Shown: in pieces, positions 3,750 to 62,300 of the stretch
How the letters are laid out: every line of letters starts with the position of its first letter
How positions within the stretch are numbered: the first letter of the stretch is position 1
Origin: Brachycybe producta
Taxonomy: Eukaryota > Arthropoda > Diplopoda > Playtdesmida > Andrognathidae
DNA: 64,000 nt
NCBI GenBank assembly: GCA_036925085.1
Contig: JAUPFP010000045.1
Coordinates: 1,054,001-1,118,000 of the forward strand
Direction: 5' to 3'
Program-made: the position numbers and the translations under genes
Notes under the pieces: generated by a model
What the model was told of the DNA's origin: nothing
Databases searched by the model: none
What the model saw: only the letters and a program-made list of their open reading frames with translations

Positions 3750-4112
3750 TTCTGGTTAAGCTTGTTTCAAAAAGTGTAAACGAATCACAAACTCTGGCTA
3801 TTCTGTCTCTCAGAAGTAATACGTAGAGAAACTTGAAACCGTTTTTAGAAACTAGCAGGGCTGCTCAATCACTTAAAAATTATCTCATGTCGATATCATT
3901 TTAAATTAAGCTTTTATATTTCAGTTTAAAAATTGATCCAAATTTAAGCAGATAATGTTTTTTTAAATTTTTGTCTATAATATGTTTTGTTTTGAAAGAT
4001 ATCAACATGAAAATACTATTAATATAAGTGATTTAGGTACCGTTGTAGTTTCTAACACACTTTTCAAATTCTCGTATTTTGCTTCCAAAACGCAGAATAA
4101 CCAAGTAAAGTA
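3750..4112. mobile_element. Fold-back A palindromic MITE
   Basis: The left arm contains CAAACTCTGGCTATTCTGTC, a variant of AGAAACTAGAAGGGTAG and a diverged GATATC core. The right arm repeats these as the reverse complement (GATATCAACATGAAAATA, then GTAGTTTCTAACACACTTTTC, then GCAGAATAACC). This arrangement defines the fold-back A family in the rest of the window. The element lies just beyond the polyadenylation side of the myosin light chain gene. Confidence 0.7.
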
Positions 4113-4349
4113 AAAAAAAAACTATAAGTAATACCTTTATTTTATCAATTATGCTTGAATAATACAAAAAAAAAAGAAAAAGATTTGACACTTTTATTTT
4201 ACTTTTATTTAGGAATATATTTTGTTAGAAAACTAATTAAAAAAAGCGCCCCAAGAATGATAATAATCAAAAGAATGTATTTTTAAAGGAAACATTTAAG
4301 TTCTTTTTTTTTTGTGGAAACAATAATTATTTTTAATTTAACAAATCTG

Positions 4350-4355
4350 TTTATT
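4350..4355 (-). terminator. Polyadenylation signal AATAAA of the myosin light chain gene
   Basis: The plus strand reads TTTATT, which is AATAAA on the minus strand. It lies 48 bases beyond the stop codon at 4403-4405. This is a canonical animal signal at a plausible distance; cleavage would fall 10-30 bases further left. Confidence 0.6.
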
Positions 4356-4402
4356 AAATAAATTTCAAGTCTTCTTTGCTTTTTTTATTTTTCCTTTTTC
4401 TT

Positions 4403-5846
4403 TTATTGTTCCGGATCGTCTTTATCCTTGGCTCCGTGTTTAAGAATGCGAGTGAATTCGATGTAGTCGAACATTCCCGTTTTGATCGGAGCTTCGCGAT
4501 ACATTTCGTCCACCTAAAAAAACGAAAAAAAAAGAAAAGAAGATTAAGAGTTATAACATAATTTCGTATGAAATTTTTGTTATGAAATTGTTGAATTTAA
4601 AAAAATAGGTACGGTAGAATCTCCACTTGAATTATCGTTAAAAAATTCAATTTAAACCCACTAAAGGTGGCTAGAATCATAGTCGCGTCAAATTTGCTTA
4701 ACACTGCGTCTATGGAGTCGTGCAGCACGTACAAACTGAGTTGGCACGTTATAGAAATTTCTCGTTACCTAAAAGGGATACGACACAATATTTCTTAAAG
4801 CTGAAAGATGTTCTCGAAGAACCGAAATGTGGCTAGCAAATTAGTAAAAAAAATCAAAAGGATGTAAAATAAAAACTCTCCTTTGAATATTGCAAAATAA
4901 AACGATGTTGGATACAACATTCGAGAAGCGATTATAACTTAAATTATAATTATTGTTCAAAACAGACATTTGACTGAATTATGCTAATTTTCTCTCAGCC
5001 CATGTTATAAAGATCATTTATCTAAAAACAAAAAGCCCATTTTTTTGCTGACAACCTTTCAGTTCTTCGGCTTTAAAGAAAAGGTAACAAGGAATTTTCA
5101 CGACGATGTTTCAAATTGCCGTTTTGGCTTCTCGAGACATTTTTTTTTTAGCAACTTTCGAATCACAAAAATTGACCACGTGTCTAAGCTCTTAAATAGT
5201 TTCATCGCGAAAGTGATAGTTTTATGCGAAATTGTAGCTTAGTAACGAAATTAGGCAAAGAAAAATGACGTCGAAAAACAAGATTAAGTTAAAAAAAATT
5301 ATATTTCGCAAACTCTCTTAATAATCTCTCAATTTTATTACGTCTTCATCCGAGAATCGATCTCCCATGCAAGTGAGAAGATCTCTTAGACGTTCTTCGT
5401 TTAAGTAACCGGTATTGTCTTCGTCAAAACATCCGAAAGCATTCTTGATGACATCCTCCGGATCGGTCCCTTGTAATTTCTCTCCGAACAGAGTGAGAAA
5501 CATGGTGAAGTTGATTGGCCCCGGAGCCTCGTTCATCATTCCATCTAAATAATCATCGGCGGGATTCTTTCCTGTGGAAGTTATTTATGGAAAAAAGTTT
5601 AAGAAGTTACAAAAAGCAGCGAAGCTTGAAAAAATTGGGATTGAAAAGAGTTTGAGAACCTAGCGAGGCCAACATGTCGTGAAGATCCTCTTTGTCGATG
5701 AATCCGTCTCGGTTCTGATCGATCATGTTAAAAGCTTCTTTGAACTCTTGAATCTGAGCCTGATCGAACATGTTGAACACGTTCGAAGTGGCTCTCTGAG
5801 CTCGCTTCTTCGTAGTTCCACGTCCCTTTGTCTTACGGCTCGACAT
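4403..5846 (-). CDS. sqh: Myosin II regulatory light chain (non-muscle/smooth type)
   Basis: Regulatory light chain of cytoplasmic myosin II. It binds the heavy-chain neck and switches motor activity when phosphorylated. Coding exons on the minus strand are 5846-5660, 5571-5342 and 4513-4403, joining in phase to 175 residues; fly Sqh has 174. The N-terminus has [12 protein letters not shown], placing the conserved Thr20-Ser21 phosphorylation pair exactly as in Sqh. The first EF-hand loop, residues 43-54, reads [12 protein letters not shown], and later segments read [20 protein letters not shown] and [14 protein letters not shown]. The start is the only ATG that gives the family N-terminus. 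A splice-acceptor-like TTTGCAG ends at 5864, so a non-coding first exon probably lies further upstream but was not located. Residue 25 is Asn where I know Ala in fly and human. The orthology group is confident; the symbol follows the fly gene. Confidence 0.96.
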
Positions 5847-5929
5847 CTTTTCAATGTTCCTTTCTGCAAATTTAAAAGAAAAATTATGAAAAAATGAAAG
5901 AATAATTAGTTTTAAAAATTTTAAAATCG

Positions 5930-6200
5930 AACTACGATTTATTCTGTCTTTCAGGGCTTGAAAGTGTTTTAGAAACTAGAAGGGTAGCGGCAATCACATA
6001 AGGCTATTTTCAGGATGATATATCTTTTTAAAAAATAAGCTTTTTAAGTTTTAGATGGTTTTTTTTTACTCATAATGTTCATTTTATAAAGATAACAAAA
6101 TGGAAATGCAATTAGTTGATACTTACTTTTCTAGTTTCTAAAACATTTTTTTTTCTAATTTAATATCGTGCTTTTAAACCGCAACATAACCAAAGTTTGA
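5930..6200. mobile_element. Fold-back A palindromic MITE
   Basis: The left arm reads TTATTCTGTCTTTCAGGGC and then TTAGAAACTAGAAGGGTAGC. The right arm carries TTTTCTAGTTTCTAAAACA. The centre has the pair TTTAAAAAATAAGC and TTATAAAGATAAC. The copy starts about 70 bases upstream of the light chain 5' UTR exon. Confidence 0.65.
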
Positions 6201-6221
6201 TTATTGGCTATTTGAAAACCA

Positions 6222-6512
6222 CCTTAAGCTGGTTTTGAAGTATAAATTGGACCTCGAACTCTGGTTATTCCATTCTGTCTTTGAGTTCTAAGCAATAATT
6301 AAAAGAAACTTTAAAAAAGTGTTTTTAGAAACTAGAACTGGGTAGTTGAATCAGTTAATTTGTATTTTCAGGTTGATATCTTTCAAAATAAAATTTTTTT
6401 AATAAGTTAAAAAGTTTATTTTAAAAGATATCAATATGAAAATATTATTAAGTGAATTTACCTAACTGTTCTAGTTTCTAACACACTTTCGATTTCTCTT
6501 CATAAAACATTT
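6222..6512. mobile_element. Fold-back A palindromic MITE
   Basis: The terminus resembles CTTAAGCTGGTTTTGAAGT and is followed by CTCGAACTCTGGTTATTCC. TTTTTAGAAACTAGAACTGG and GATATCTTTCAAAATAAA are on the left, with AAGATATCAATATGAAAAT and TTCTAGTTTCTAACACACTT on the right. This is a fairly complete copy that abuts the previous one. Confidence 0.7.
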
Positions 6513-6879
6513 TAAGTCAAATTCTTCATTTTTTTTTTTGTTCTTCTTCTGTTTTTCAAGTAACTTTTGAGTAAATTAAAATAGAAAAATGTGTGTTCGC
6601 GGTGCAATAACACTTTTACATTATTTGTGAGGTCATTTTATAAATAGCCTCAAGTTTTCGTGACTCACAAATGTATAAATAATGGCCACTGACATTTTTT
6701 TTTCAGAGTTATTTTTACGACAAACAACAAAATGTGACCAAAAAAACTACTTTTAAAACTATTACGAAACTGTTTTTTTGAAATTTATGAAAGTAAAAAA
6801 AAAAAATTCCTCCCTCTCTTTGTTTTATAATTTAAACATTGCAAAAATATGCAAATGAGAGAGAAGGATTTAATCAAAC

Positions 6880-7275
6880 TATTGATTTGAGTTATTCTGC
6901 AGTTTCAGAACAGCCAACACTGAGGAGAAATTGAAAATGTGTTAGAAACTAGAATGATTTAACTGAATCACTTTTAATGCTTGCAAAATATACTTAAGTT
7001 TTTTTCTTCTAATTTCTAAAACACTTTTTAAGGAATAATTGATAGTGTCTTAGAAACTAGAAAGGTATAGAGCGCAATCACTTAATTGTATTTTCATGTT
7101 GATATCTTTCAAAATAAACTTTTTATAGACAAAAATTTAAAAAAAAATATTGTCTACTTGAAAGTTGGGTTATTTTGAAACTGGCATAAAAGCTTATTTT
7201 GAAAGATATCAATATTAAAATACCCTTAAGTGATTGAGTTACCCTTCTAGTTTATAAAAAAAAACTTTCACCTTT
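6880..7275. mobile_element. Two abutting fold-back A copies
   Basis: A short copy (about 6880-7030) has GTTAGAAACTAGAATG facing TCTAATTTCTAAAACACTT with most of its middle deleted. A longer one (about 7030-7275) follows, with TTAGAAACTAGAAAGGTA, GATATCTTTCAAAATAAAC and the reverse-complement right arm. The short copy shows how these palindromes lose their centres. Confidence 0.6.
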
Positions 7276-8289
7276 CTTTTAATTTTGCACATTGAAATAT
7301 AAATTTAAAATTCACATAGGCCTAACAGTAAATGAGAAGTAACATAATTTATTAAAATATAAGATTAAATTATTGTTGGCGTCGCTAGACGGCGCCACCA
7401 ATTCAGCTATCGCTTCTTTAACACATTGTTTATTTTAAAATATTAACAGGATGTTTGTCTTAAAAGTCAAAATTTATTTTTATGATTTTCCTCCCTCACC
7501 CACCCACACATTAAATTTTCAATTACAAAAGAGGGCGGAGGCACCCTGCAAAGAGAGGGGCACAGTGGCCCTTGTACAAAAAAACCCTGCTGCCCCCTAT
7601 TGACATAATCAAAAAATAACAAAAAAAATCAAGTTATAAAGTAAAATAGGCCACAAGAATTGAATGACTAATAGCTCAGTGAGAGAGATAAAAACAGTTA
7701 AAAGAATTCCATGACCATAAAAGGAAAAATCGCAAATATTTCTGCAACAACAGTCAATATAAGCAATCGTTTAAAATGTATAATTTTTTTAAGAAAAAAA
7801 AAGAACAATTCATTTATATTGTTCTTAGTTATAAGTTTATATACTTACCCCTTTTTTTAAAAAAAAAGATAAACTAATCTATGAAAGAAATGCCAACTTC
7901 ACGAAATTCACACACAAAATGAAATGTCTAAAATTCCGAGAAAAAAAGGAAACGCATAGAAATAGTGTTAAAATGCACCACTAGGTGGCACTTAATTCGC
8001 CACAAAAAATGCAGCATGGGAAAAAAAAAAGGGTGCAAACTTCAATAGCGCTTTATTTTATAGCTTTCTAGCCTCTTATTTCTACAATATATTAAACATA
8101 TGTTTAATGCAGCGCGCCTCTAGTAGCAGTAGGGTAAAAAATGGCCTATTCAATATTATTATATACTAGAAGGGTAAATCAATTTCATATTGTTTGATCA
8201 TGATGATTATTATTAAATCAAGTGAAAAATAGAAATAGAAATATTTCAAACTTCTTATAGAAAAGTTTTATTTTGAAATATGAGCAGCT

Positions 8290-8455
8290 GATTTTCAAAC
8301 TAGAAAGTGTTTTAGAAACTAGAAGGCGTAGCTCAATCACTTATTATGGATATTTTCATGTTGATATCTTTCAAAATAAGCTTTTTATGACAACTTTAAA
8401 CTTTTTAAAATGTTTGTCTAAAAATAGTTTATTTTGAATAGTTTATTTGATTGAG
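8290..8455. mobile_element. Half copy of fold-back A
   Basis: Only the left arm is clear: GAGCAGCTGATTTTC, TTTTAGAAACTAGAAGGCG, TCATGTTGATATCTTTCAAA and then AAGCTTTTTATGACA. The right arm is replaced at about 8455 by the left part of a related element. Confidence 0.55.
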
Positions 8456-8464
8456 CTAAAATTT

Positions 8465-8830
8465 GAGCAAAAATTAAAAAAAATTAGAAACTAGAATAAT
8501 TGGTGATAATGCTCAAACATTTTTTTTTTTCATGATGATATCTTTAAAAAAAAAATAACCTGTTTAATGAAAATTTGAAAAAGGAGAAAATAATTTTTTT
8601 CATGAAATGTCAATGAAAAACCCCCCAAAACAGGTCATTTTCAAACTAAACTATAAAATATTTATTTTATAAGATATTGTCATGAGAAAACGTTTAGCAT
8701 AATCTTTTGCCATTCTAGTTTTAAACACAATTTGAATTTTTTTCGTAATAAAAACGTTCGCTTGACGTTTTTGCGCGCAAATTTTACAAAAACATCTAGA
8801 GAGAGCGCAGCACTTGACTGATATTGATTA
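8465..8830. mobile_element. Fold-back H element (GACGTTTTTGCG tail)
   Basis: It starts with TTAGAAACTAGAATAATTGG, has TGATGATATCTTTAAAA on the left and TAAGATATTGTCATGA on the right, and then CATTCTAGTTTTAAACACA. The tail reads AACGTTCGCTTGACGTTTTT and GCGCGCAAATTTTAC. The same order is seen at 10.05-10.45 and 49.65-50.08 kb. It shares its core with fold-back A but has a different right end. Confidence 0.6.
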
Positions 8831-8854
8831 GTCGACTAAAAATTCAATGGACGA

Positions 8855-9235
8855 AAATCTTTTGCCATTCTAGCTTTTAAAAACAATTTCGAATTTTTTT
8901 TTTTAAAAAATGTTGTTTCTAAAAAAAAAAAGTTCACTAGACGTTTTTCCTCCCAATTGTTTTAAAACATCTATTGAGCTTATATACATTAATTAGCCAC
9001 AGCAGCCGTGGCACCATCCGGAGTGAAGGACAGGCATCTGTAGACAGCTTCAGAATTTCTTTGGCTCCGCCCTTTTATGAGCGTCAGACGAAATATCAAC
9101 CAATTAGAAATAAAAAGGGTGGTGGGGCATGTGACATCAGACCCAGTAACAAACCAATTAGAAATTGAATGACGCTCATAAAAGGGCGGAGCAAAAGGGA
9201 AAGACAAAAACCAAATATCTATTGAGCCACCTTAA
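8855..9235. mobile_element. Truncated fold-back H copy carrying a GC-richer inverted-repeat insertion
   Basis: The segment from 8855 to about 9000 repeats the right part of fold-back H (CCATTCTAGCTTTTAAAAAC, then GACGTTTTTCCTCCC and CATCTATTGAGC), and CTATTGAGCCACC resumes at about 9218. Between them lies a 23-base perfect inverted repeat: GCTCCGCCCTTTTATGAGCG and three more bases at 9064-9086, matched at 9170-9192. CAACCAATTAGAAAT and AAACCAATTAGAAAT recur inside. A related element lies at 23266-23463. Confidence 0.6.
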
Positions 9236-9429
9236 AAATGATTGTTGTACCACACTACAGGTTTTATAATATATTTTAAAGCATTTTTTTTTCTTCTTTA
9301 TTATTGCAAATAAACAACCCAGGCGTGGAATTATATAAAAATGTATAACAATTGATGGATAAAACCAGAACTTTGACAACTTTTAAAACAAACATTTTGT
9401 AATGTGAGTGTATCTTGTATGTATTTATG

Positions 9430-9480
9430 GGGTGTTGTGTGTACTGTGTGTGTGTGTTATGTGTGTTTGTGTTATTTGAC
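9430..9480. repeat. GT-rich microsatellite
   Basis: The stretch is mostly TGTG with interruptions such as GTGTGTGTGTTATGTGTG. It is simple-sequence DNA and no function is visible. Confidence 0.6.
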
Positions 9481-10029
9481 CTGATGTGACAGTGACAACA
9501 TAATTATCACTGTGTACTGTTTTTCATTTTGAAAACATTTCAAATTCTTTCTAACTTGTCTTCTCTGTGAAAAATATATCAAAAAAAAAGTTCTTTCTTA
9601 TTTTTCTTTTTTCCAAAAAAAAAAAAATACAACAACAAAGACATAATTTGAGGCCTAGATTTCTGTTTGAAAAACAAGGACTAGTATTCATTTCATTACA
9701 AATTTACAAATGAGTTGGGGGAGAGTTAAACAACATTTAGATTAGAGAGAGGTAATGTGGTGGAGGGGTGGTTGACCTATGACCTAAGATAATATTTTTT
9801 TTTTAATATTAAAAAAGAAAATCAAAATTATTTCAAGGTTTTCTTGTTATTCTTACGAGAATTTGTTATCCTAGCTGAGACTATTCTAACTGGGATGACT
9901 TCGAAGGTTGGAGGTTGGAGGTTGAGGCTAGCAGTAACGTTTGGCCGCAGCACAAAATTAATGAGTGGTTAAATAGCAAAAAGCATAATATGCAATTGTA
10001 GCAGATTACAGAAGAGGATGTTTTTTTCA

Positions 10030-10450
10030 AAAGAAACATTACGAGAAAAAAAAATTAGAAACTAGAATAAGTTGGTAATAATGCTAGAAGTTTTGTTCAT
10101 AATTATATCTTTCAAAATAAACTTTTTATGATAGTTAAAATAAGGGCCGAAAATAGTTTTTCATGAAATGTCAATGGAAAAAAACAAACCAAAAAAAAGG
10201 GTCATTTTTCAAATTGAACTATAAAATAGTTTATTTTTTAATATATTGGCATGAAAAAAAAACTTTAACATAAACTTTTACTATTCTAGTTTTGAAAACT
10301 ATTTCAATTTTTTTTTAATGTTTAAAAAAAAACGTTCGCTTGACGTTTTTGCGTCAAAATGTTACAAAAATATCTATGGAGCACAGCATATAAGCCACTG
10401 CAGGTGGCGCGAGCCGTCCAGAGGATCAAAAAAGCAAATTAAATATTTAT
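10030..10450. mobile_element. Fold-back H element
   Basis: It contains TTAGAAACTAGAATAAGTTG, TATCTTTCAAAATAAAC, AATAGTTTTTCATGAAATGT and CTATTCTAGTTTTGAAAAC, then the tail CGTTCGCTTGACGTTTTTGC and CACTGCAGGTGGCGCGAG. The order matches the copy at 49.65-50.08 kb. Confidence 0.65.
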
Positions 10451-10462
10451 AAAACCACCTAA

Positions 10463-10760
10463 TACCTTGTACACACATGAGTTAAATGAATTCAAATTAA
10501 ATGTGTTTAGGTGAATTATACGGAATCCAGTTAAGGACATGAACCAAATAAAAATTGACTTTATTATTAATATTTTAAATTGAAATCCTAAATCAATATT
10601 TTGTCAATAGTTAACATATCATATTTAAGTATTAACTCAATATTTTGAGATTATTAACTAAATAAATTGAATTCGATATATTGTTTGTTTGCCCTTCACA
10701 GGGCTCTGTAGAACACATTATTTAAATGCATTTAAATTATCAGGTGTCTACTAGGTATTA
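10463..10760. mobile_element. GTACACAC-terminus MITE
   Basis: The ends ATACCTTGTACACACATGAG and CAGGTGTCTACTAGGTAT form imperfect inverted repeats. The inside is close to the copies at 401, 22237, 29811 and 40879. It is non-coding, about 298 bp, and probably flanked by TA. Confidence 0.75.
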
Positions 10761-11164
10761 CAGTGTTAACTTCAATTTAAATCCATTTTTTAATATGTAA
10801 ATTATTTTTTGTTCTCCATTTAACCCCTCATTTTATACTTTTTTTTTTCGCTACCATTCATGTCACTGCTAGCCTCCACCTCCAACCCTCGGTTTTGTGC
10901 TAAGTTAGAATCCTCTCAGCTGGTTGTGGGTTTCTATTTTTGTTTGTGTGTATTTATGACAGCTATAATGAAAATTATGATCGATTAGTCTGCTTATACA
11001 TTTTTTTTGTAGTCCATTAATTTGTTGACTCAAAAAAAAAATAACATTGGTAAGAAAACTAACAAAAAAATAACAATGTGACAAGTGACATTTATGTATG
11101 AGTTTGAGAGAGAGACACACTTTTTGTTATAAAAGAAAAAAAGATCTTATAATGAGCACTTTTG

Positions 11165-11222
11165 TTGAATACCAAAGCAGGCAATAATAATAATAATAAT
11201 AATATTAATTATAATAATAATT
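11165..11222. repeat. AAT trinucleotide microsatellite
   Basis: AATAATAATAATAATAAT runs with small interruptions. A second tract of the same unit lies at 11411-11445, next to the left end of a GGGCTCG element. Confidence 0.7.
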
Positions 11223-11409
11223 GGGTTGATGAATATAATCCTTCACAAAATTTCACATTTAAAGCAAAATCTTACACACTTTTTTTTTTCTTCGAGGGGA
11301 AAAATTAAAAACACACACATAAGAATGGCACAAATATTATTTACAATATTTACAAATTAAATTCGTCCAAATATAATTAATTATAATGCTTGAATACATA
11401 ATTTCACAA

Positions 11410-11444
<35 letters not shown>

Positions 11445-11455
11445 TATAATATTAT

Positions 11456-11738
11456 TAGGGCTCGAATTTTTACGCAATATCAAAGCAAATGTTTCTCAAA
11501 TGCCAATTGTGAAGTAATCATCATCATTAGAGCAACTGTAATTATGGTTTTTATAATCGAAAAGTATGGTTAGAGGCTAGTTGTCTGGTTACTAACCTCT
11601 AACTAATGTTTTTGATTAAAAAAAACATAATTGTTGGTTGATTGATCTAAACGCGAGATTGTTATTTCACAAATTTTGGCAATTGGGCCACAGATTGAGA
11701 AACATTTGTTTGATGTTGCATAAAAATCCGAGCCCTAA
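11456..11738. mobile_element. Palindromic MITE, GGGCTCGGATTTTTA family
   Basis: It begins TTAGGGCTCGAATTTTTACG and ends CATAAAAATCCGAGCCCTAA, giving terminal inverted repeats with few mismatches. The arms continue inward (AAATGCCAATTGTGAAGTAA facing AATTTTGGCAATTGGGCC), so most of it can fold on itself. It is one of the two most complete copies of this family in the window. Confidence 0.75.
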
Positions 11739-11764
11739 ATATTATCCAAACTGAAGTAAGATCA

Positions 11765-11965
11765 GAAAATTTAAGATGGTTTAGAAACAGCTGATTTACG
11801 AACTCTTTGATTATTCTGCCTCTCAGGAGCAGAAATTAAAGAGAAACTAGAAAGTGTTTTAGAAACTGGAAGGGTAGCTAAAACACTTAATGGTATTTTC
11901 ATATTGATATCTTTCAAAATAAACTTTTTTTAAAGAAAAATTTAAAAATATCGTCTACTAATACC
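11765..11965. mobile_element. Half copy of fold-back A
   Basis: The left arm is intact: AACAGCTGATTTACGAACTC, TTGATTATTCTGCCTCTCAG, TTTTAGAAACTGGAAGGGTA and GATATCTTTCAAAATAAAC. The right arm is absent. Near 12180 a short piece (AGAATAACCCAGAGTTCGAG) looks like its detached far end. Confidence 0.6.
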
Positions 11966-12234
11966 CCATTTCCACTAAAAAAAATTAACTGCAATTAAAA
12001 AAGTTAATCACAGTTAACTTTCTAGTGAAAACAAATGGGCTTACATTACCATGATTAAATTTCTGAACAATGGAGTTAACTCAACTGCATTGACACCATG
12101 TGGCAACCAGATTATTTAGCCTACAAACAACATGGCGGATAGTGAAACACCTTCAAGTTTTTTTTCTTGATTTTGCACCTGAAAAATAGAATAACCCAGA
12201 GTTCGAGAAGCCCCGTTTACACTTTAAAACCACC

Positions 12235-12375
12235 TTAACACTCCAAATTCAAGAATGAAACTTTGCATTTGAACTTCAACTTCAACACTTGAACTGGTAG
12301 TTTTCTATGTTGAAAACTCCTGGCTCAGAGGGTTCAAGTTGAAACTCAAGAGCCAAGTTTCCTTTTTAGAATCTG
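12235..12375. mobile_element. Inverted-repeat element, CACTTGAACTTCAACTTGAA family
   Basis: TTGAACTTCAACTTCAACAC on the left faces GGTTCAAGTTGAAACTCAAG on the right. Related copies lie at about 21145-21330, 21365-21510 and 26530-26690. It sits directly downstream of the LIX1 stop codon, so it may be transcribed as part of the LIX1 3' UTR. Confidence 0.55.
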
Positions 12376-12423
12376 GAATTGAGTTGAGAATGCTAGAGAT
12401 TAAAATGTGTCAGGTTGTCAATC

Positions 12424-48513
<36,090 letters not shown>

Positions 48514-49649: not shown

Positions 49650-50085
49650 CGGTTTTCAGGAGAAACTTTTACGAAAAAAGTTAAAAGTGTTTTAGAAACT
49701 AGAATAGTTGATGTTAATGCTAAAAGTTTTGTTTATGATGATATCTTTCAAAATAAACTTTTTATGGCTGTTTGAAAAAGGCGAAAATAGTTTTTCATGA
49801 CATTTCAATGGAAAAACCTTAATTTCAAACTGAACTATAAAATGTTAGTTTTTTTAAGATATTCTTCACGAAAACAAACTTTTAACATTACCTTTTACCA
49901 TTCTAGTTTTTAGAAGAATTTGAATTTTTTTCGTGATGTTGTTTAAAAAAAAAAAACGTTCGCTGGACGTTTTTGCGCCCAAATTTTACAATAAAGTATA
50001 AACGTCTAGCATTATCTACTGCAGTGACGCTGTCCGGGAACACAAAAACAAAATAAATATCTATTCAGCCACCATAACTAAATTT
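49650..50085. mobile_element. Fold-back H element, most complete copy
   Basis: TTTTAGAAACTAGAATAGTT, GATGATATCTTTCAAAATAA, ACTTTTTATGGCTGTTTGAA, TAGTTTTTCATGACATTTCA, ACCATTCTAGTTTTTAGAAG, CGTTCGCTGGACGTTTTTGC and TACTGCAGTGACGCTGTCCG follow in order. The copies at 8465 and 10030 share the same order. Confidence 0.65.
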
Positions 50086-50665: not shown

Positions 50666-51054
50666 ATTGTTTACAATTGCAAGTTTCTCAAATGATTTCA
50701 ATTACCTTCCAGTAATTACAAAACAGGCGTTAGATAAAATGTGTGATATCATCAGATACAAATAAAAACAATTACTAATTAATTACATTGTGCTAATTAG
50801 TGACTTTTTTGGACTTACATTACATTACAATTACTAATTACATTGCTGAGAAATTAATTAGAATTACTGAGTTTAAAAAAATTAATTACAATTACTCATT
50901 TTCAAAAATAATTTCAATTTACTTTACAATTACAAGTTAGGTGGGAGGTAAAGAGTGAAACATCATCAAATGTAACAAAAACAATTACAAAATTCAATAT
51001 AAGAAAGTCACATTCAAACACAAAATAGATAAATATGCAAAATAACTTCGTAAG

Positions 51055-51290
51055 TAATTTGTAAAGTTTATTTGTAAAGTAATTTGTAAAGTAATTTGTA
51101 AAGTAATTTGTAAAGTAATTTGTAAAGTAATTTGTAAAGTAATTTGTAAAGTAATTTGTAAAGTAATTTGTAAAGTAATTTGTAAAGTAATTTGTAAAGT
51201 AATTTGTAAAGTAATTTGTAAAGTAATTTGTGAAGTAATTTGTGAAGTAATTTGCGAAGTAACTTGTAAAGTAATTTGTAAAGTAATTAA
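51055..51290. repeat. 12-bp tandem array (about 19 units)
   Basis: The unit TAATTTGTAAAG repeats about 19 times and diverges only near its right end (TTTGTGAAG, TTTGCGAAG). Short GCAAAATAATT units follow at about 51295-51345. The unit length is a multiple of three, so open frames run through it on the minus strand; they are not genes. Confidence 0.9.
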
Positions 51291-52748: not shown

Positions 52749-52801
52749 AGCTTTTATGATTGACATATATATATTATATATATATGTCAATCATAAAAGC
52801 T
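52749..52801. repeat. 53-base perfect palindrome
   Basis: Arms of 26 bases beginning AGCTTTTATGATTGACATAT are exact reverse complements around a single central T. A second AT-rich tract follows at 52812-52840. It would extrude as a cruciform or hairpin. Confidence 0.85.
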
Positions 52802-53094
52802 ATTATATCTATTATATATATATATATATATAAATACATATATAAATTTAATAAAAGGGTATCTTTTGATTAGGAAGCTGCTAGCCTCTAAGGAGGGATG
52901 TTGCGCGGCGGACGAGCAGTAAAAATTGAATAAGGTGTACATAGAGGCTATAAACGGGGTTTCTCATCGAGAAATTATATGATAAAAATTTTTTAATATA
53001 CATATTTATTTCATGAAATAATATTTTTTTCATTGTGTAGGAGTAAAAGAAGAAGACAGAGGAGGAGGCTAAATATGACACATACTAAAGATTT

Positions 53095-53235
53095 TTATTT
53101 CTATTTTTCAGTAGCAAAATTATAAAAAAAACTAGAAATTGTTTTAGAAACTAGAAGTTTCTAGTTTCTAAAACACATTCATGTTTATACTCATTTTGCA
53201 CTTGAAAGCTAGAATAATCGAGAGGCTTTTATTCT
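53095..53235. mobile_element. Collapsed fold-back A copy upstream of ACP1
   Basis: TTTTAGAAACTAGAAGTTTC is followed at once by TAGTTTCTAAAACACATTC, so the arms meet with no centre, and the right arm continues AGCTAGAATAATCGAGAGG. It ends about 90 bases before the ACP1 start codon. Confidence 0.65.
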
Positions 53236-53270
53236 TATTAAATTAAAACGGCCATTAGATATATTGTTAG

Positions 53271-53330
53271 TGGGCGTGGCTTATTTGAAATGACGTAAGA
53301 GTGTCGCATTGAGTGACGTCATTCAAGATG
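53271..53330 (+). promoter_or_regulatory. Putative ACP1 proximal promoter elements
   Basis: TGGGCGTGGC (53271-53280) is a GC/CACCC-box. TGACGTAA (53291-53298) and the full palindrome TGACGTCA (53314-53321) are CRE/ATF-type sites. CAAGATGGCAGC overlaps the start codon and resembles a YY1 site of the kind found at downstream promoters of housekeeping genes. These are motif matches only; no TATA box is seen. Confidence 0.45.
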
Positions 53331-54740
53331 GCAGCCTCCAGTGAAAACAAGAAATCTGCTCTTTTCGTCTGCTTAGGTAAGTTTTACATAAGGAAAAAAA
53401 AATGCATGATTTTAGTTGTTGTTTTCGATACGAAACAACTTAAAAAAGAATGTTTGTAATATCAGTAGATGTTTATAAGGCCTAAGGTTAAATAACAATC
53501 TAGAAAGAAGAAGAAAAACGTTTATCTTTATGGGTATGGCTCGATTTCTCTTTCGATTTCTTCTTCTTCTTCGTTATTAACTACTGGGTGTGTGTACTTA
53601 TTTTTTTCATCTTCTCTTTCATAAAATATATATGTATATATATATAAAAAAAATCAAAGCAGTATTGCCTTGAGACATAAAACAAAGATATTCACACAAA
53701 GAAGGGTAAAAAGTACCATTTAAAACTTGACATTTCGTTATTATACGAGTTTTTGTTTAAAATACAACCATGGAACGCAAAAAAAAAATGCTTCAACGAT
53801 GAAATATTTCAAAATTGATTGGAATTTTATTTGTATTATAGGAAATATCTGTAGATCTCCAATCGCTGAAGCTGTTTTCGCTTATTTAGTGAACGAACGT
53901 GGTCTTAAAAATGAGGTATGAATTAAAAAGGGTGGTGATGGTGGTGGTGAGAGGAGGAGATTGTATTAAGTATGTTACAAGTGGTTTTTTTGAATCCGTT
54001 TTCTCACGTTTTTCACTTTTTTCTTCTTCTTCTTTTTCAGTGGGTTATTGACAGTGCTGCCACAGGGGATTGGCATACAGGCTCTTCTCCGGACTCAAGG
54101 GCCAGAGCATGCATGAAGAAACATGGTATTCCTATGAATCACAGTGCGAGACAGGTGATTTAACTTTCTTTTTCAGGTGATTTCTCTCGCTTTCTCCCTT
54201 TCTTCTCATTACTTCGAGTCTCTCTCTCTCTATCATTCTTGATATTTATTGAACGATTTCAATGCAAAACAGGCTCTCAACAAACAACAAAGATGGACCT
54301 CCCTCCTCCTCCTCCTCTTCGTTTTTTATTATTTTCTGTATTCTAATTTTTGTACTGTATTTCCCTTTTTTACAGCTCGTTCTCGACGATTTTCATAAGT
54401 TTCAATATATTTTTGGAATGGATAACGACAACATTAAGTAATTTTGTCTTTATACGGTTATTGGTTTTTTATGATTCAGTTTGTTTTTGTCTTTAGAAAT
54501 ATTAAAAGGATGGGTCCAAAGACTTACAAAGCAAAGATAGAACTTTTGGGTCAGTACGATCCTGAAGGAGATCTCATCATTCGTGATCCGTATTATGTAA
54601 GCCTTATAGGAAGTTAGGAGTCTTTTGAGGATAACATAAAGATTTGTCTTTTGTAGGATTCTGGTGATAAAGGGTTCGAAGAAGTTTATGAACAATGTTT
54701 GAGATGTTGTAATGCTTTTCTCGACAAGGAGCAGGAATAG
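53328..54740 (+). CDS. ACP1: Low molecular weight protein tyrosine phosphatase
   Basis: Cytosolic phosphatase of the ACP1/LMW-PTP family, which removes phosphate from tyrosine in receptor and adhesion signalling proteins. The six coding exons are 53328-53376, 53842-53915, 54041-54154, 54376-54437, 54497-54596 and 54657-54740. They join in phase to 160 residues; human ACP1 has 158. The P-loop C(X)5R is seen as VCLGNICRSP with catalytic Cys15 and Arg21, split by intron 1 at Gly17. The general acid lies in RDPYY (Asp130), with the usual pair of tyrosines following. SAATGDWHTG and KAKIELLGQYDP are also family hallmarks. The start is in good context (AAGATGG). All introns are short. AATAAA follows the stop by about 100 bases. 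No second version of exon 3 or 4 was found, unlike the alternatively spliced human gene. Confidence 0.97.
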
Positions 54741-54841
54741 TTTTAAGAAATTATTCATAGATGTGGTTGATTTTGTCTTTTATTGGTTGCTTCATCATCA
54801 TCTCAAAATATAATTATGAGACTATATGATGGCAAAATACA

Positions 54842-54847
54842 AATAAA
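54842..54847 (+). terminator. Polyadenylation signal AATAAA of ACP1
   Basis: AATAAA occurs in AAATAAACACTTTT, 102 bases after the TAG stop, at a normal distance for a short 3' UTR. Confidence 0.6.
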
Positions 54848-55269
54848 CACTTTTAACAGGATTTTTATGCGTTTATTTAAATTTTTAATGTGGTTTCTAT
54901 GAAAGTGGGATCATGATAATTAAGTAGGAGAAATTATGCTCTTTTTTAATTTAAAAGACTTGTTTAAAGGCTAAAGTCGTGAACAACTCAAGTGTCTTGC
55001 GCTGATAGAAAAAACTTTAGCCTCTAAACAGGTTTTTTTTTAAATTGCAAATTGCTGCGTATTTTCTATGATTGGTTTAATATTAGCTGAAGCGCTTTAG
55101 TTAACTTAATTTTACGCTCAGCAGTGAACGCCTGCAAAATATGAACGAGATGCGTTATTATTCAGTAAATAATTCGTTATATCCAATAGTTTATTTTAAG
55201 CTTTGCTTTACATACAAGATTAAATTATTTGTGTTTAATTGAACGATATTTTGAATTGATCTATAATCA

Positions 55270-55340
55270 GCATCGGTGGTTCAGTGGTAGAATGCTCGCC
55301 TGCCACGCGGGCGGCCCGGGTTCGATTCCCGGTCGATGCA
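55270..55340 (+). tRNA. tRNA-Gly (anticodon GCC)
   Basis: The 71-base sequence folds as a full cloverleaf. The acceptor stem pairs GCATCGG with TCGATGC, leaving discriminator A. The D arm is in TGGTTCAGTGGTAGAATGC, the anticodon loop CTGCCAC has GCC at 55302-55304, and the T arm is CCGGGTTCGATTCCCGG. No intron is present and CCA is not encoded, as in eukaryotes. The internal promoter boxes A (TGGTTCAGTGG) and B (GGTTCGATTCC) are intact, and five T follow for RNA polymerase III termination. It delivers glycine at GGC and GGT codons. Confidence 0.98.
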
Positions 55341-55342
55341 CA

Positions 55343-55347
55343 TTTTT
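55343..55347 (+). terminator. RNA polymerase III terminator of tRNA-Gly
   Basis: A run of five T begins three bases after the tRNA end, the usual Pol III stop signal. Confidence 0.75.
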
Positions 55348-55454
55348 ACTTCGTCTCAATTATTTTAAAATTTGTTTGCTGTTATTTAGTTTTTTTAAAT
55401 GTTTTACTAATAATTCTAGTTGTTCTGTGTTTTATTTGCAACACTAACGAAAAA

Positions 55455-55770
55455 TTGAAATAAGAAACTAGAATAACTGAATGATTTTGTAGTATTTTCA
55501 TGTTGATATCATTCAAAATAAACTTATAATTTTTATAACAAACATTAAATAAATATCGACTGCTTAAACTTGATTCATTTTCAAACTGATATAAAAAAAA
55601 CTTATTTTAAAATTAACTGTCAGTTTGAAATTAATAAGAAACTTCATTTTGAAAGATATCAAATAGGAAAATACCCGACAATACGATTGAGCTACCCTTC
55701 TAGTTTCTAAGATACTTTCAAGTTTTCTTAATGTTGTTTCTGATAGAAATGATAATCAAGAGTTAAAAGT
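55455..55770. mobile_element. Fold-back A palindromic MITE downstream of tRNA-Gly
   Basis: AAGAAACTAGAATAACTGAA, TTCATGTTGATATCATTCAA, TTTGAAAGATATCAAATAGG, TACCCTTCTAGTTTCTAAGA and ATGATAATCAAGAGTTAAAA occur in canonical order. Confidence 0.65.
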
Positions 55771-56086
55771 TTTTATATTTTACGATAAAAATATTTGCAA
55801 TTATTGTAGATCAAAATATTACTTTTTTTCAATCAGTGAGACTGTTTCGAGACTATAAAAACATGTAAATCTAGTTAGAAAAGGGGGATTAACCAAGGAT
55901 TCTACTTCAATTATATAGCCACTAAACAGTTTCATTTTATTAAAAAAATGCAAAATTCTTTATGGCTTTGGATAAGACAACCAGAAAAATGCATTTTTCA
56001 GTCAAATAAACAGGTTAGAAGATAGAATTCAGAGTTAAGTATAAGACAAAAGAAACAATTGCGAAAACATACACAAAAAATTGCTT

Positions 56087-56092
56087 TTTATT
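56087..56092 (-). terminator. Polyadenylation signal AATAAA of BRIX1
   Basis: The plus strand reads TTTATT 17 bases beyond the stop codon at 56109-56111, implying a very short 3' UTR. Confidence 0.55.
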
Positions 56093-56108
56093 TCTTTTTG
56101 TAATGGAA

Positions 56109-58190
56109 TTATTTTAACAACACATTTTTCCATCCAGGTGATTTTCTCGGTTTCTTTTTCTTCAGTTTCATCTTCTTACTTCTGGCCATACGCTGTTCGG
56201 CGAATTTCTCAACCTCGATTTCGTCAGTGTCTTTTTCTTCAATCTTGTCATTTGGAATCTTGAAAACATCATCGAATGGATCAAGTTTGTAAGAGACTTT
56301 GGGTTTTCTCATTTCAGCAGACAACATCCCCTCGCAACGATTCACAAACTTCATAGAGGCTTCTTTCTTGAGCAATCGACGGTGCTTTTAAACGAGAACA
56401 AAAAAGGTATAAAAATTTGAACGTAAAAGTTCTTAATGTAAAAATTATACCGTATTAGGAGATACGTAAAAATCGTTGGACCATAAAATTTCACCTCCGA
56501 AACTTCCACTAAATATTTTAATCGGATTTAAAACAAAACGAGGACCTAAAATCATGTAAAAAAGAACGTCAAACCTTATAACCACTTTAAAAAAACTTCA
56601 TTCTTTAAGTTTCAATAACTACCGATCTCTACGAGGGATCCGTTTTCTTCCATTATCTGATAATTACGGAACCAAATTCTTTTGTCGTTTACGCTAAAAC
56701 ACAAGACGTGATCCACAAATGGCTGACTTTTAGGATGTGAATTAGGCGTACTGAACACCTAGAAGTACTCTTATTAGACGTTACTATCAGAAGATGGGGC
56801 TCGATGTAAAACATTTAAAACCTGAACGAAGAGTTCTCGAAGAAGAGCGTAATGTGGTTCTGATTCGAAGGTCCGGTCGAACGATAAGATCGGCCTCGAA
56901 CCTTTCAAACAATTTCCGGTCATTTTCAGTTCTCCCATCGTGTGAACTAGAATCAAATGTAAAATGAGCGATTTCACAGTTAATAACATAATAGGGCACT
57001 GTTTTTACTGTTGCCGACGTAGAATTTAGCTGATGGACCATTGGGAACGTTTGAAATCCTGTGGAAAATCAGAAGAAGAAAAAAAAACCACTTAATTTTG
57101 CAATCGTTATAATTTTCGTAATCTAATAACAAACCACATATAAAGATCCAATCCTTTTCTTTGTTCAAGAAAAATACATTTATTGCAATTCTTCATTTCA
57201 CAGACCTGAAAGAAAAACAACCGACAAGAAAATAAGGAGAAGCGTTTTTATTTTGAAGTGAGAAATGCAATTAAAATCAAAAAGAGACCTGGTTGATGAC
57301 AGATAAGTAATCTTTCTTTTCCATCTTTGAATCTAAAAGAAACGGAAGGTTTGATGTTAATTAGGTAAAATGCAAAAAATATGCTAAAAAAAATAAATTT
57401 TCAATGAATTATTTTTGTATCTCAGAAGCAACACTAAGAAAGACAAAAAAAAAAGGAGACCGGAAGCTGAACCACTTGATATTATTTTCGTTTCGATATC
57501 GTTCAATGTTTTTTATAAACAAAAATTTAAAAAAAATATCATCGGCTTAAACTTGGGTCATTTTCAAACTGGACATATAAATGCTTATTTTAAATAAATA
57601 CCCTTAAGTGATTCAGCGACCCATTCTAGTTTCTAAAAACACTTTCAAAGTTTCTCTTAATTTTTCTCCTGAAAGCCAATTAACAGAATTCAAGAGACGT
57701 TTTACACTTTCAGAAACGACCTTAATGCATTTTTTTTTCTACAGATTTCTTATTGCCTTCATTATTCTGCAAGTAATAGCTTGATTTATTTAACTTTCTA
57801 GTTTTATGTAACTATCTTGCAGTTTTAAGTTCCTTTTGTTTAATTTTTTTTCTTCAACTTTTGCATTTCAGAGCAGAGGTATGTTGTTACATTTATACCT
57901 GGTTTCGAATGTGGTAACATGGATCTAAGATTCATTAACAAGTGCCTGGATCTGTGAGTTACGCCTCTGGAGGCAAAAACCAGAACACGTTGTCTGTTTA
58001 TCCATTTAACCTACGAGAAAAACGTCTTATTAATTAATCGTTCACGTCATTTTAGTATTTAAAAAAATGTAAAGATTACCCTCTTTGCTGGTGGTTCATC
58101 AGATCTAACGGTTTTTGCCGGTCGAACTACTTCTACAGGTTCAACTTTAACGACTTGTTTCTTATCATGACCACGCTTTCTCTTCGCCAT
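56109..58190 (-). CDS. BRIX1: Ribosome biogenesis protein BRX1 (Brix domain)
   Basis: Nucleolar Brix-domain protein needed to assemble the large ribosomal subunit. Minus-strand coding exons are 58190-58080, 58010-57899, 57332-57289, 57205-57135, 57058-57009, 56946-56822, 56758-56623, 56545-56451 and 56384-56109. They join in phase to 339 residues; human BRIX1 has 353 by recall. The N-terminus is basic (MAKRKRGHDKKQVVKVEP). The Brix domain, about 40-235, shows VLVFASRGVTHRSRHLL, EMKNCNKCIFLEQRKG, DLYMW, NGPSAKFYVGNIHT, MTGNCLKGSRPILSF and PFVDHVLCFSVNDKRIWFRN. After IGPRFVLNPIKIFSGSFGG the C-terminus is charged and lysine-rich (KKMKLKKKKPRKSPGW), as expected for a nucleolar protein. The start has A at -3 and G at +4. 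It diverges from the PAIP1 gene and converges on ACP1. Confidence 0.97.
57415..57720. mobile_element. Fold-back A copy inside BRIX1 intron 2
   Basis: CGATATCGTTCAATG and the TTTAAACAAAAATTTAAAAAAA-like centre lie on the left. GATTCAGCGACCCATTCTAG, TTTCTAAAAACACTTTCAAA and GAATTCAAGAGACG with TTTTACACTTTCAGAAACGA lie on the right. It explains why this intron (57333-57898) is much longer than the other BRIX1 introns. Confidence 0.6.
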
Positions 58191-59365
58191 TTTTTTTTCC
58201 TTCTGAAAGGACAAGAAAGGAATGAAGAATCGATATTGATTTAATTGTATAAAAGTTAAAGTAACCGGTTCTCGTAATAACCAAAACTAAAATGGTAATG
58301 CAGAGCCTAACAAAAGTCAGTTTTCACATTACATACTATCCTTAGATTCCTTACTATGTACGCACTGTCTCTTTCTTGTAATATATTGTTGGATCACCTT
58401 GTATTGTCAGTGTTGCCAGATTTATAATGTTAAATTCACGCCACGGATGCAAGGGGGACGACATAAAAAAAGATCATGTAAGAGATTCACAAAGATTCAT
58501 TAAAATACACAGCAGAGTGTATGTATCATAAGCCTGTTTACTTTTTATCCGCGTTTTACTGGATACTCCGAATAAATATGAATTAAATGTAAATCTAGTT
58601 AAATACGGATAAGAAAGTAAAACAGCTTACAGGAGATTCATTCCCTCTATCGTCCCTATTGCGCGTATTTATCTTAATATTTGTAGATGACAATTTTAAA
58701 AGACAGTCTATATTTAATTTACACTGAAATTATTTAATAAGAATGTGATTACATTCTTGACGAGTGTTTTGAACATAAACTAATATTTTCTCACTACATT
58801 TTCGATAGAAATCGAGGAATAGAAAAATACATTGTAAGAAGGGCATAAGCAAACCTTTATGTAAAAACATTTGACGACAAGGGAACGATTTAATAATACT
58901 ATAGTAAAAGTGAACAAACATGGCGTATAGTCTCAAATGACACAACAGGTAAAGAGCCATATTCGTACAGTTAATTGAGCTTCAAAAATCTCACGTAGAG
59001 TTATATTTCCGTTTTAATAACTCTTGAACTTCTTTTGAAACAGTTTTGTACTAAATAGCCTCAAATACATCCACACTTAATGGCCAACTCATAGACTCTA
59101 CGAAATTTTCTAACATGGCGCCTATGTGTACGAAATCAGGTTTGAGTGTATTTGAGGTTATTTTTAACCAAAAATTTCTGTTTGGGATAAAGTTAAATTT
59201 AATTAGGGATAGCAATGAAAGTTTGATCTGGTCACATAATATTTTTCATATGGAATTTATCCGCCATTAGTTGAGAATATAAGAAGACAACTGGTCTGCT
59301 GGTTGTTTTTTCTTTCTTTTTGTGTCGTGGGTTATTTTTTAATTAATTTCTTTTGTGCAGTTGAA
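58191..59365. promoter_or_regulatory. Shared upstream region of divergent BRIX1 and PAIP1
   Basis: The two start codons are 1,175 bases apart and point away from each other, so both promoters should lie here. ATGGCG-type (YY1-like) words occur at the BRIX1 start and near 58920, 59115 and (inverted) 59262. An acceptor-like TTTTGTGCAG ends at 59360, six bases before the PAIP1 ATG, so PAIP1 may have a non-coding first exon here. No gene or repeat family member was recognised in the region. Confidence 0.45.
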
Positions 59366-62300
59366 ATGTCCGACGATAAACAACAACAGCAGCTTCCATA
59401 TAGAGGAAGGGGAGGAATAATATCGCAGGGAGAACCACAGGAAAGGCAACCACTAAGGAGACCTGGTGGTGGAAACATCACTCCGGACAAAGGATCAGGT
59501 GGATAAAACCACAAAAAACAACAATAACCAGAAAATACACCCACTTTTAGCAAACTTATCTATCATATTCTAAACATATACGCAAAGATTTAACCAATAT
59601 ATTTAAGGGAAATGAAAGAAAAACGAATTTTATGCGTAAAATCGTATCGTTTGCCTACGTGTTTATTTTATAGTATAGACAAGTGGCGTCCTCTGGCGAC
59701 CTACGTGTTTTCATTTGTATGTAGTAGAAGACTAGAAGTAATCTTAACGTTTTTTTTAAGGTGATCACTTACATTACGTTCCTCCAATCTCGTCGACCTT
59801 ATCTCCAATGGCCGTCGAGTTCGTTCCAAGTTCGGCTCGTTTATCTTCGACTTTAGAGTCGACTTCGACGACTTCTTATTCGGCACCTCCATTTCAACCG
59901 AGGTTACTACAACAACAGCCGCAGACGAAACTACAACAACAACAACAACAGCAGCAGCAGCCGGAACCGTACGAGAACGGAGAGAGTGAAACCGAAATCA
60001 CGTTGGAACATCTCAGGACCATCATGTACGAAATAACGGTGAATCCGGGTAAATTCGACATGTTGGCCTCTTTACTCGTCGATGCTCTTGGAGCGATGGT
60101 TAGAGACGAAGAGACGCTTGCGGCAGTCGTCAACGAGATCTTCGAACAGGTGAATTTAGCTAAAGACCTGGTTGTTTTAGAGAATTTTTTTTTTTGACCG
60201 GAAGCTTCTTTTAAGGGCTTAAAATCATTTTATTTATGAACGTTGTGCAGTCTATTGATGAGAAATGGTTTTTTCATGCAGCTAATGAAAAAATTTCATG
60301 ATATATGTGAAACGAAAAGGTTAAAAGAAGGATGTATCAATTATTTTGATGATATTTTTGAAAATAAACTGAAAAATGGCATATAACAATGATTTTCCAA
60401 CAGCTGATTATTCGAACTGGCGTTACGCTGCAATTAGAAGGCTAAATGGATCGCTTAAAGAATAATTTGATGATGAATTTGAAATAAACTTTTACACTTT
60501 AAACTTGAACTTAACTGGAAAAAACTTAAATGAAATAATACCACAGACGATCAATTTTTGGATTAAATCAACCGGGATTTATAGTCTGTGGCTAGCTTTA
60601 AACTTATTTCAGGCTGTCATACAAAGTTTATTTTTAGTATAGTAAAGTATATTTGAAAATGTTGTTTGCACCTGCGTTTACGGTTATAGTTTCAAGAAAC
60701 TTGTGAAATTTTTTCATAAGTTTTAAACAGAAAGGATTCTCATTGTTGTTCTGCGATTTTCTCTTCTTAATGAACTTTTATCTAATTTTCAGTCGGTCTC
60801 AGAGTCAAATTTCAGGTATAACGGAGCTCGACTCTGCAACTGTTTATCTAAAAACCTCCATCTGTCGTTTGCAAGCCAAGGCTTTAGAACAACGCTTTTT
60901 CAAAGGTTTTGAACACTTTTTGCTGTATAAATTTTTATACAACATTGATCGTAACTTGTTTTATATCAAATCTTTTAGGTGTCAATACGAGTTTGCACAG
61001 AAAGACGTCATATGTAAAACGGACAGTCCTCGGTTGTGTGATTTTACGATGTTCATGGGAGAACTTTTCATTCATTTGGAGGTTTTATAAGAAACTTCGT
61101 ATTTCTTTTGATTTTCCTTCTCTTTTAGTTTAAAAAAATGCTTGTAATTTAGTATTAATGTTCTTTTCTTTGGAGATCAAGTAATCAGCTGTTTGAATCT
61201 CGCCTTAATTTCCATTCACTAGATACAAATAAATGGAGTTTTACAGAAAGTGTCACTTCTTGGACACACAGTTCCACAACTTCTAAACACTTTGCTACAA
61301 AATCCATTAAAAGAAAATCTCAAGTGTGTTTGTCAGATGCTGAAAGTAAGCCTAGAATAATTTATATTAATTAGTTTGATTGTGTACGACTAATGGCCAC
61401 ACTTGATGTTCTCAATTGTAGTTTACCGGAGCTGCTTTGGAGGACTACGAACGGTCGGCCAACGAAGGTCTTTGTCCGTTTATGGATCAACTGTTTCACG
61501 TCATGAAAAATCTGAGTGTTGACGACAGGATTGATAGGTTTTATTAACACTACAGTGAAAATATTTTAACATAAAAACGGATAACACGAATTATATTTTT
61601 GGTCGCATTCCTCAGAAGTTTTTCATATGCAGTAGAAACTCGATTATCCGGACTAAATGGGGCAGTACCTGGTCCTGATTACTGAAAGTCCAGATAATCC
61701 ATAAAAAGGCCCGTTTTTTTACTTTTAATTCTCTCTTTCAATATTGTAAAGTTAAGTCAAAAACACTAGTAAACTAAAAAAAACCCGCTTATGTTGTTGT
61801 AAAAAGTCAGTTCGGATTACCCGGAAGTCCGGATAATCCGGAAAATGTTCCGTTTTTTTAAAACTTTAATTTTATTTTTCATTGTCAGGAAATTAAGTCA
61901 AAAACACTAGTAAATTAAAGAAAACATTTATATTGCGATAAATACTGTTTCGGATTACCGATATCTGGATAATGGAGATTCTACTGTATTTTAATCTAAA
62001 GATGAAATGAATAACACGAAAATATTGGTTAATTAAAAGATTTTTTTTCGGTTTCATGAATAAAAATCATGCAAATGCAAAATCATTTTTCAACAGAAAA
62101 AAACTTCAAAAGACCTCGTTTTCCAAATTCGCTTCGAGATATTTTATTTTTGTAAAGGTCATTTTGATAAAGGAAAAAACACTTAAATTTTTGGACGGGT
62201 TTTTTTAAAATCTTACTCGTTCTTTCTACATTATTAAAAAGAGTAGGCGGAGCCAAGATGCAAATTTTAAATATTAAAAAAAAACGTTTTATAAATGTTT

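What the first reader, a model, noticed from the sequence alone, without database searches (positions are those of the whole stretch)
3750..60520. A single palindromic MITE family (fold-back A) seeded through the whole window
Twenty-five or more whole or partial copies share the order CTCGAACTCTTGATTATTC, AGAAACTAGAAGGGTAG, TTGATATCTTTCAAAATAA and then the reverse complement. Better copies (38730, 43020, 46612, 33930) run about 320-390 bp with distinguishable outer ends: one like TTAAGATGTTTTATGAACAG and the other like GGCGTTTACACTTTAAAACC. They sit in every class of non-coding DNA here, including introns of LIX1 and BRIX1, but in no exon. I do not recognise the family from any described transposon. 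Its abundance and internal pairing make it a candidate source of hairpin RNA.
Basis: partly seen in the sequence, partly recalled or inferred. Interest (0 to 1): 0.75.

Follow-up and report, generated by a model that had tools for sequence, protein, structure and literature searches.

The report
Old TTAA-targeting hairpin MITE family
The hairpin sequences scattered through this animal DNA are old, decayed copies of one small jumping element that inserted at TTAA, ordinary in kind, except that neighbouring copies nearly always point the same way, which is not explained.

Summary
The window carries 28 blocks (12.0% of its bases) of one palindromic repeat. The family is genome-wide: 1302 exact 30-mer matches against 0 for the reversed pattern, and 4.6% of a 20 x 4 kb sample. 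A 373-bp consensus has sharp ends beginning TTAAGGTGG and TTAAGATGG around arms that fold into a near-perfect hairpin. TTAA is the target: 111 places match two ends sharing one TTAA, 0 match two TTAA. It is a non-autonomous TTAA-type MITE. Its termini are purine-purine, as reported for Kolobok, and not CCC as in the two piggyBac families read here. No transposase with these ends was found. The best near-full-length copies are 85-94% like the consensus, and arm pairing decays without compensating changes, so nothing supports a selected hairpin RNA. One feature is unexpected: abutting copies are almost only head-to-tail (29 of 29 junctions typed on both sides, of 50 examined), and neighbours share somewhat more private differences than unlinked copies. 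Local duplication at the TTAA fits best but is inferred. Small RNAs and Dfam/Repbase could not be tested.

The parts
3759..4105 (+). fold-back A copy
   Evidence: nhmmer with consensus
5927..6503 (+). two abutting fold-back A copies (5927-6226, 6225-6501), about 80 bp upstream of the MRLC start codon; shared TTAA, head-to-tail by eye
7031..7292 (.). fold-back A copy, partial
8296..8438 (.). fold-back A fragment
11772..11962 (-). fold-back A half copy with 3' end
12138..12237 (.). fold-back A fragment
15254..15530 (-). fold-back A copy in LIX1 intron
15619..15859 (.). fold-back A partial copy in LIX1 intron
19422..19742 (-). fold-back A copy, two-ended, TTAA eroded
19757..19953 (.). fold-back A partial copy
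21577..21723 (.). fold-back A fragment
22771..23067 (+). fold-back A copy
23093..23259 (.). fold-back A fragment
29216..29573 (+). fold-back A copy, two-ended, TTAA at 5' end and TTGA at 3' end
33936..34243 (-). fold-back A copy
38731..39114 (+). fold-back A copy
42363..42577 (.). fold-back A partial copy; its trimmed 3' end abuts the next copy's trimmed 5' end
42579..42869 (+). fold-back A copy
42886..43019 (-). fold-back A partial copy ending in the 5' terminus
43023..43026 (.). single TTAA shared by two abutting copies, head-to-tail junction
43056..43368 (-). fold-back A copy
44299..44404 (.). fold-back A fragment
46025..46279 (.). fold-back A partial copy
46618..46978 (+). fold-back A copy; MFE about -112 kcal/mol, z -9 to -12
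46970..47316 (+). fold-back A copy with a clear 3' terminus at TTAA
47734..48039 (+). fold-back A copy
49652..49940 (-). divergent fold-back copy (31% from consensus, subfamily-like)
53159..53233 (.). fold-back A fragment
55418..55764 (+). fold-back A copy 78 bp downstream of a tRNA gene
57413..57724 (-). fold-back A copy in BRIX1 intron

Best explanation
Fold-back A is a non-autonomous DNA transposon (a MITE) of about 373 bp that inserted into TTAA and was carried by a transposase supplied from elsewhere, more likely of the Kolobok type than piggyBac (inferred from the termini, about 0.55). It spread long ago and has decayed since. The hairpin comes from the way the element is built (nearly its whole length is inverted repeat) and shows no sign of being kept by selection. 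Some single insertions became head-to-tail dimers and short arrays sharing one TTAA, perhaps by local duplication between the two TTAA copies (strand switching past the hairpin, or re-integration of a circle closed at TTAA; about 0.45). Shown: the family, its ends, the TTAA target, decay, the distribution on one contig, the orientation bias. Inferred: the transposase type and the duplication mechanism. The confidence below is for the core, an old TTAA MITE.
For: Genome-wide copies with defined ends. Conserved columns start at TTAA on both sides (67 5' end records and 38 3' end records; these include two overlapping locus pairs, and loci fetched for likeness to a window copy). 111 places match two ends around one TTAA and 0 match two TTAA, reversed controls 0; of 50 junctions examined, 29 have fold-back A ends typed on both sides. 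One nested copy (L033 1501-1813; its right repeat reads TCAA) whose joined flanks align to the consensus across the junction (1 of 42 joined records). Termini GG/GA fit the purine-purine ends given for Kolobok (PMC6004289, passages); two piggyBac families of this genome start CCC. Best near-full-length copies 85-90% to the consensus, 93-94% over about 300 bp (40 of 4798 candidates scored). No compensating changes beyond chance in 74 of 76 copies. Dimer neighbours share more private differences than unlinked copies: mean 0.187, n=26, against 0.123, n=873; 0 of 5000 random sets as high.
Against: No Kolobok transposase with matching ends was found: of 106 THAP matches I fetched 4 and none looked like one. 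Only 10 of 21 two-ended copies have exact TTAA on both sides, and identity just outside TTAA shows a weak excess at 5, 6, 8 and 9 bases (17-43 of 500 shuffles reach it) that I take as chance or composition. In a first look 9 of 10 dimer pairs shared no more than unlinked copies; the excess is modest, so independent insertion may explain a part. At least one head-to-head junction exists (L118, automatic; L119 by eye; L114 without TTAA).
Confidence: 0.85

Rival explanations
1. It is a piggyBac-type MITE: TTAA target, moved by a piggyBac transposase of this genome.
For: TTAA target; 93 piggyBac matches, several with intact frames of about 610-620 codons.
Against: Both piggyBac families examined (6 loci of 93 matches) end in TTAACCC and show no match to the MITE consensus. 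On contig C1 piggyBac matches sit where the MITE is rare. The other piggyBac matches were not examined.
Confidence: 0.2
2. Abutting copies arise by independent second insertions into the TTAA beside a resident copy, with the orientation fixed by the transposition complex or inverted pairs lost afterwards.
For: Double insertion into a target duplication is the mechanism favoured for Drosophila dimers in reviews (PMC12628747, PMC9659126, passages). About 3.5 million TTAA sites and 15,000-55,000 copies would give 64 to 862 chance neighbours (rough, copy numbers assumed). 9 of 10 pairs share no more than background.
Against: Random orientation predicts half inverted pairs; 29 of 29 typed are head-to-tail. 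Loss is a weak account, because the element is itself a palindrome and head-to-tail pairs are largely palindromic too (reasoning). Neighbours share more than unlinked copies in the larger set.
Confidence: 0.35
3. The hairpin is a functional small-RNA source under selection.
For: Consensus folds at -219.6 kcal/mol against -69.7 for shuffles; 16 of 20 window copies have z below -2.6; copies lie in introns; with all 76 copies paired double changes exceed shuffles.
Against: That excess goes when two divergent copies are set aside; no Rfam family reaches its gathering score in the window except a tRNA.
Confidence: 0.05

Closest known systems
Kolobok superfamily and Xenopus T2-MITE (PMC6004289, passages)
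   Same: TTAA target; purine-purine termini; short non-autonomous copies with inverted repeats
   Different: T2-MITE ends are AGGRR and the ten full-length Xenopus elements end in AG, here GG and GA; no Kolobok transposase with these ends found; host looks like an arthropod (one protein)
piggyBac and its MITEs
   Same: TTAA target
   Different: the two piggyBac families read in this genome end in CCC; the MITE ends in GG/GA
Foldback elements such as Tetris of Drosophila virilis (PMC4079207, search listing only)
   Same: foldback structure linked to tandem arrays, by title and listing
   Different: sequence and target not compared here
Transposon dimers by double insertion (McGurk and Barbash, as told in PMC12628747 and PMC9659126, passages; the paper itself not seen)
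   Same: tandem copies that share one target duplication
   Different: orientation almost only head-to-tail here, and neighbours share more private differences than unlinked copies

Membership tests
MITE (generic) | short, terminal inverted repeats, high copy number, no coding capacity | tested here: met
   373 bp, 163 pairs in the fold, longest stop-to-stop frame 67 codons, 1302 exact 30-mers
MITE (generic) | target site duplication | tested here: met
   TTAA at both ends; one shared TTAA in 111 pattern places, 0 with two; one nested copy
Kolobok | TTAA target | tested here: met
Kolobok | purine-purine termini | tested here: met
   5' end G 91%, G 65% (A 14%); 3' end G 92%, A 81% (G 13%); rule from PMC6004289
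Kolobok | mobilising THAP-DDE transposase with the same ends | tested here: inconclusive
   106 THAP matches; 4 loci fetched, none fitting
T2-MITE | AGGRR terminus after TTAA | tested here: not met
   GGTGG / GATGG
piggyBac | TTAA target | tested here: met
piggyBac | CCC-type termini as in the host's own piggyBac families | tested here: not met
Dfam/Repbase family | match to a named consensus | not testable with these tools
   neither library is on hand; four 14- to 19-base words of the family occur in 0 papers of the held library

The most novel reading that the evidence does not exclude
Palindromic MITE copies multiply in place: single insertions turn into head-to-tail dimers and arrays joined by one TTAA through an orientation-locked process (strand switching between the two target copies past the hairpin, or a circle closed at TTAA). 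This would be a transposase-light route from a scattered MITE to satellite-like arrays.
Probability: 0.35. Interest if true: 0.6.

Novelty: new member of a known kind. Interest (0 to 1): 0.4.

Why it matters
The family makes up a few percent of the sampled genome and 12% of this window, so it must be masked before gene or small-RNA work. The head-to-tail rule among abutting copies offers a natural experiment, with dozens of cases in one genome, on how dispersed transposons turn into tandem arrays.

Tried and rejected
Inner palindrome as an independent element: not supported. Of 107 places matching the inner TTAA region, most continue into the outer arm by eye; L013 and L021 have an element end there and L003 is a truncated array. 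I did not count the rest.

Hairpin kept by selection or by arm conversion; the excess with all 76 copies comes from two divergent ones.

A founder dimer moving as one unit: not supported, since first units across loci are no more alike (0.117, n=449) than first and second units (0.123, n=873).

Kolobok partner through THAP: two of a group of ten THAP matches lie in an element of about 880 bp with other inverted ends. L132 and L133 carry long THAP frames that do not look like Kolobok by eye; I ran no family scan on them.

Host: among named proteins the closest by identity to the MRLC is a millipede's at 92%, with other arthropods mostly at 83-91% (120 of 948 listed; the first row by score is a bird protein at 63%). 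The species is not identified.

An early tally by the G/A letter alone gave 39 of 49 junctions head-to-tail (counted by eye); typing by the longer subterminal sequence replaced it. The 50 junctions are 49 of the 50 places listed (L105, with a changed TTAA, dropped out) plus one more in L094. Of them 21 have one or both sides untyped and are left out of 29 of 29; one of the 29 (L073) passes only marginally. The 36 dimers are 27 of the automatically typed ones and 9 typed by eye; 26 pairs had enough sequence. Some places are duplicate haplotypes (same strings on two contigs), so counts are inflated a little.

Full report
What is there. The window is part of a 295.3-Mb assembly of 442 contigs. 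An iterated profile search over 266 kb of held sequence gave a consensus that, cut at its sharp ends, is 373 bp. It covers 28 blocks and 12.0% of the window, and 15 blocks and 4.6% of 20 stretches of 4 kb taken at round positions on the larger contigs; 8 of the 20 stretches hold a block. The reversed control had no hit. Bootstrapping those 20 stretches gives roughly 26,000 to 92,000 blocks per genome, fragments included. An exact 19-mer occurs 283 times and an exact 30-mer 1302 times, reversed patterns 0.

Ends and target. Across 67 5' end records and 38 3' end records, conservation begins abruptly at TTAA and is followed by GGTGGTTTTAAAGTGTAAACG on one side and GATGGTTTATGAACAGCTGATTTT on the other. 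These records include two overlapping locus pairs. Of 21 distinct two-ended copies, 10 have exact TTAA at both ends; a weak excess of matching bases further out (5, 6, 8 and 9 bases; 17 to 43 of 500 shuffles) does not settle on one length. 111 places match two element ends around a single TTAA with at most one mismatch, 0 places match two TTAA, and reversed controls give 0. Not every such place is two fold-back A copies: of 50 junctions examined, 29 are typed on both sides. One of 42 joined records (L033 1501-1813) is nested in another copy, and its joined flanks with a single TTAA align to the consensus across the junction; the right repeat of that copy now reads TCAA. I take TTAA as the target site and its duplication.

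Fold. The fold of the consensus has 163 pairs, 157 of them Watson-Crick, at -219.6 kcal/mol against -69.7 for shuffles. Window copies are decayed: z from -0.4 to -12.1 in 20 copies, 20 shuffles each. Divergence from the consensus is 8-31% in 76 copies, median 13%; that set is enriched for copies like the query. The best near-full-length genome matches to the consensus are 85-90% identical, 93-94% over about 300 bp (40 of 4798 candidates scored). Double changes that keep a pair number 114 against 94.6 in shuffles with all 76 copies (4 of 500 reach it), and 91 against 86.0 without two divergent copies (140 of 500). I read this as neutral decay of an old element.

Place in the genome. On contig C1 (22.2 Mb) 2 of 85 exact 30-mers lie between 8.3 and 19.6 Mb, where 43 are expected, while the 39 piggyBac places that I listed there lie between 5 and 19 Mb. 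In the window, copies lie in introns of LIX1 and BRIX1, upstream of MRLC and near a tRNA gene, and in none of the coding pieces identified.

Which transposase. TTAA is used by piggyBac and Kolobok (Sola3 too, recalled). The Xenopus paper (PMC6004289, passages) gives Kolobok ends as purine-purine, T2-MITE ends as AGGRR, and AG for its full-length elements. Here the ends are GG and GA. Two piggyBac families of the genome, read from six loci of 93 matches, end in CCC. This favours a Kolobok-like source, but no such transposase with these ends was found among 4 THAP loci fetched out of 106 matches.

The unexpected part. I fetched the 50 places listed (47 loci). Typing each side by its 34-36 bp subterminal sequence, 29 of 50 junctions were typed on both sides and all 29 are head-to-tail, one of them (L073) marginally; 18 had one side untyped and 3 both. 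In sequence not chosen for junctions, 4 distinct junctions were typed, all head-to-tail: L011, L012, window 42580 (trimmed ends) and window 43023. End-specific patterns with up to 3 mismatches give 99 head-to-tail places (24 at 0-1 mismatch), 26 head-to-head-like places (0 at 0-1 mismatch) and 2 tail-to-tail-like places. Both tail-to-tail-like places are typed head-to-tail (L078, L094). I looked at all 26 head-to-head-like places: by automatic typing one is head-to-head at a TTAA (L118) and one without TTAA (L114); L119 is head-to-head by eye; L070, L072, L073, L081 and L121 are typed head-to-tail; the window's own 6222-6227 is head-to-tail by eye; the rest have one or both sides untyped. Random orientation would give half inverted. 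The 99 head-to-tail pattern places were not all fetched.

Relatedness of neighbours. In a first set 9 of 10 pairs shared no more private differences than copies from different loci, L066 being the exception. In the larger set neighbouring units share more (mean 0.187 in 26 pairs against 0.123 in 873; 0 of 5000 random sets as high; medians 0.175 and 0.116, 2 of 5000), while first units across loci (0.117) are not more alike than first and second (0.123). So some dimers probably arose from one copy in place; others may be independent insertions. Longer arrays occur (L070, L083). Reviews describe dimers by double insertion at the target duplication (PMC12628747, PMC9659126, passages); the passages I saw do not address a near-absolute orientation.

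Verdict. A real, old, genome-wide TTAA MITE; a new member of a known kind as far as these tools can tell. Four words of 14 to 19 bases from it occur in no paper of the held library, but Dfam and Repbase were not on hand. The hairpin-RNA idea has no support here. The orientation rule is the part worth following.

Noticed in passing
window 420-692, 10480-10751, 22251-22535, 29830-30079, 39308-39409, 40882-41154: A second dispersed repeat family; some pairs of copies are 90-97% alike over 73-134 bp, others 62-77%.
   Followed up: no
L004, L070, L075, L080: Another repeat with ends like TACC..GTACACAC sits inside or beside fold-back A copies; looks like a TA-target element by eye.
   Followed up: no
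L130 3733-4612, L131 3768-4648: An element of about 880 bp with 37-41 bp inverted ends carries a THAP-domain exon; ten THAP matches of the genome have similar scores and extent (two fetched).
   Followed up: partly
contig C1 5-19 Mb of G000: piggyBac-rich, fold-back-A-poor centre of the longest contig.
   Followed up: partly
window 49652-49940, 10070-10145; L057 638-984; L080 left side: Divergent fold-back copies that seem to form a subfamily with a different inner arm.
   Followed up: no
L003 1200-2000, L122: Short arrays of truncated units joined between the inner palindrome and the next 5' end.
   Followed up: no
window 51052-51288: 12-bp tandem repeat, about 20 copies.
   Followed up: no
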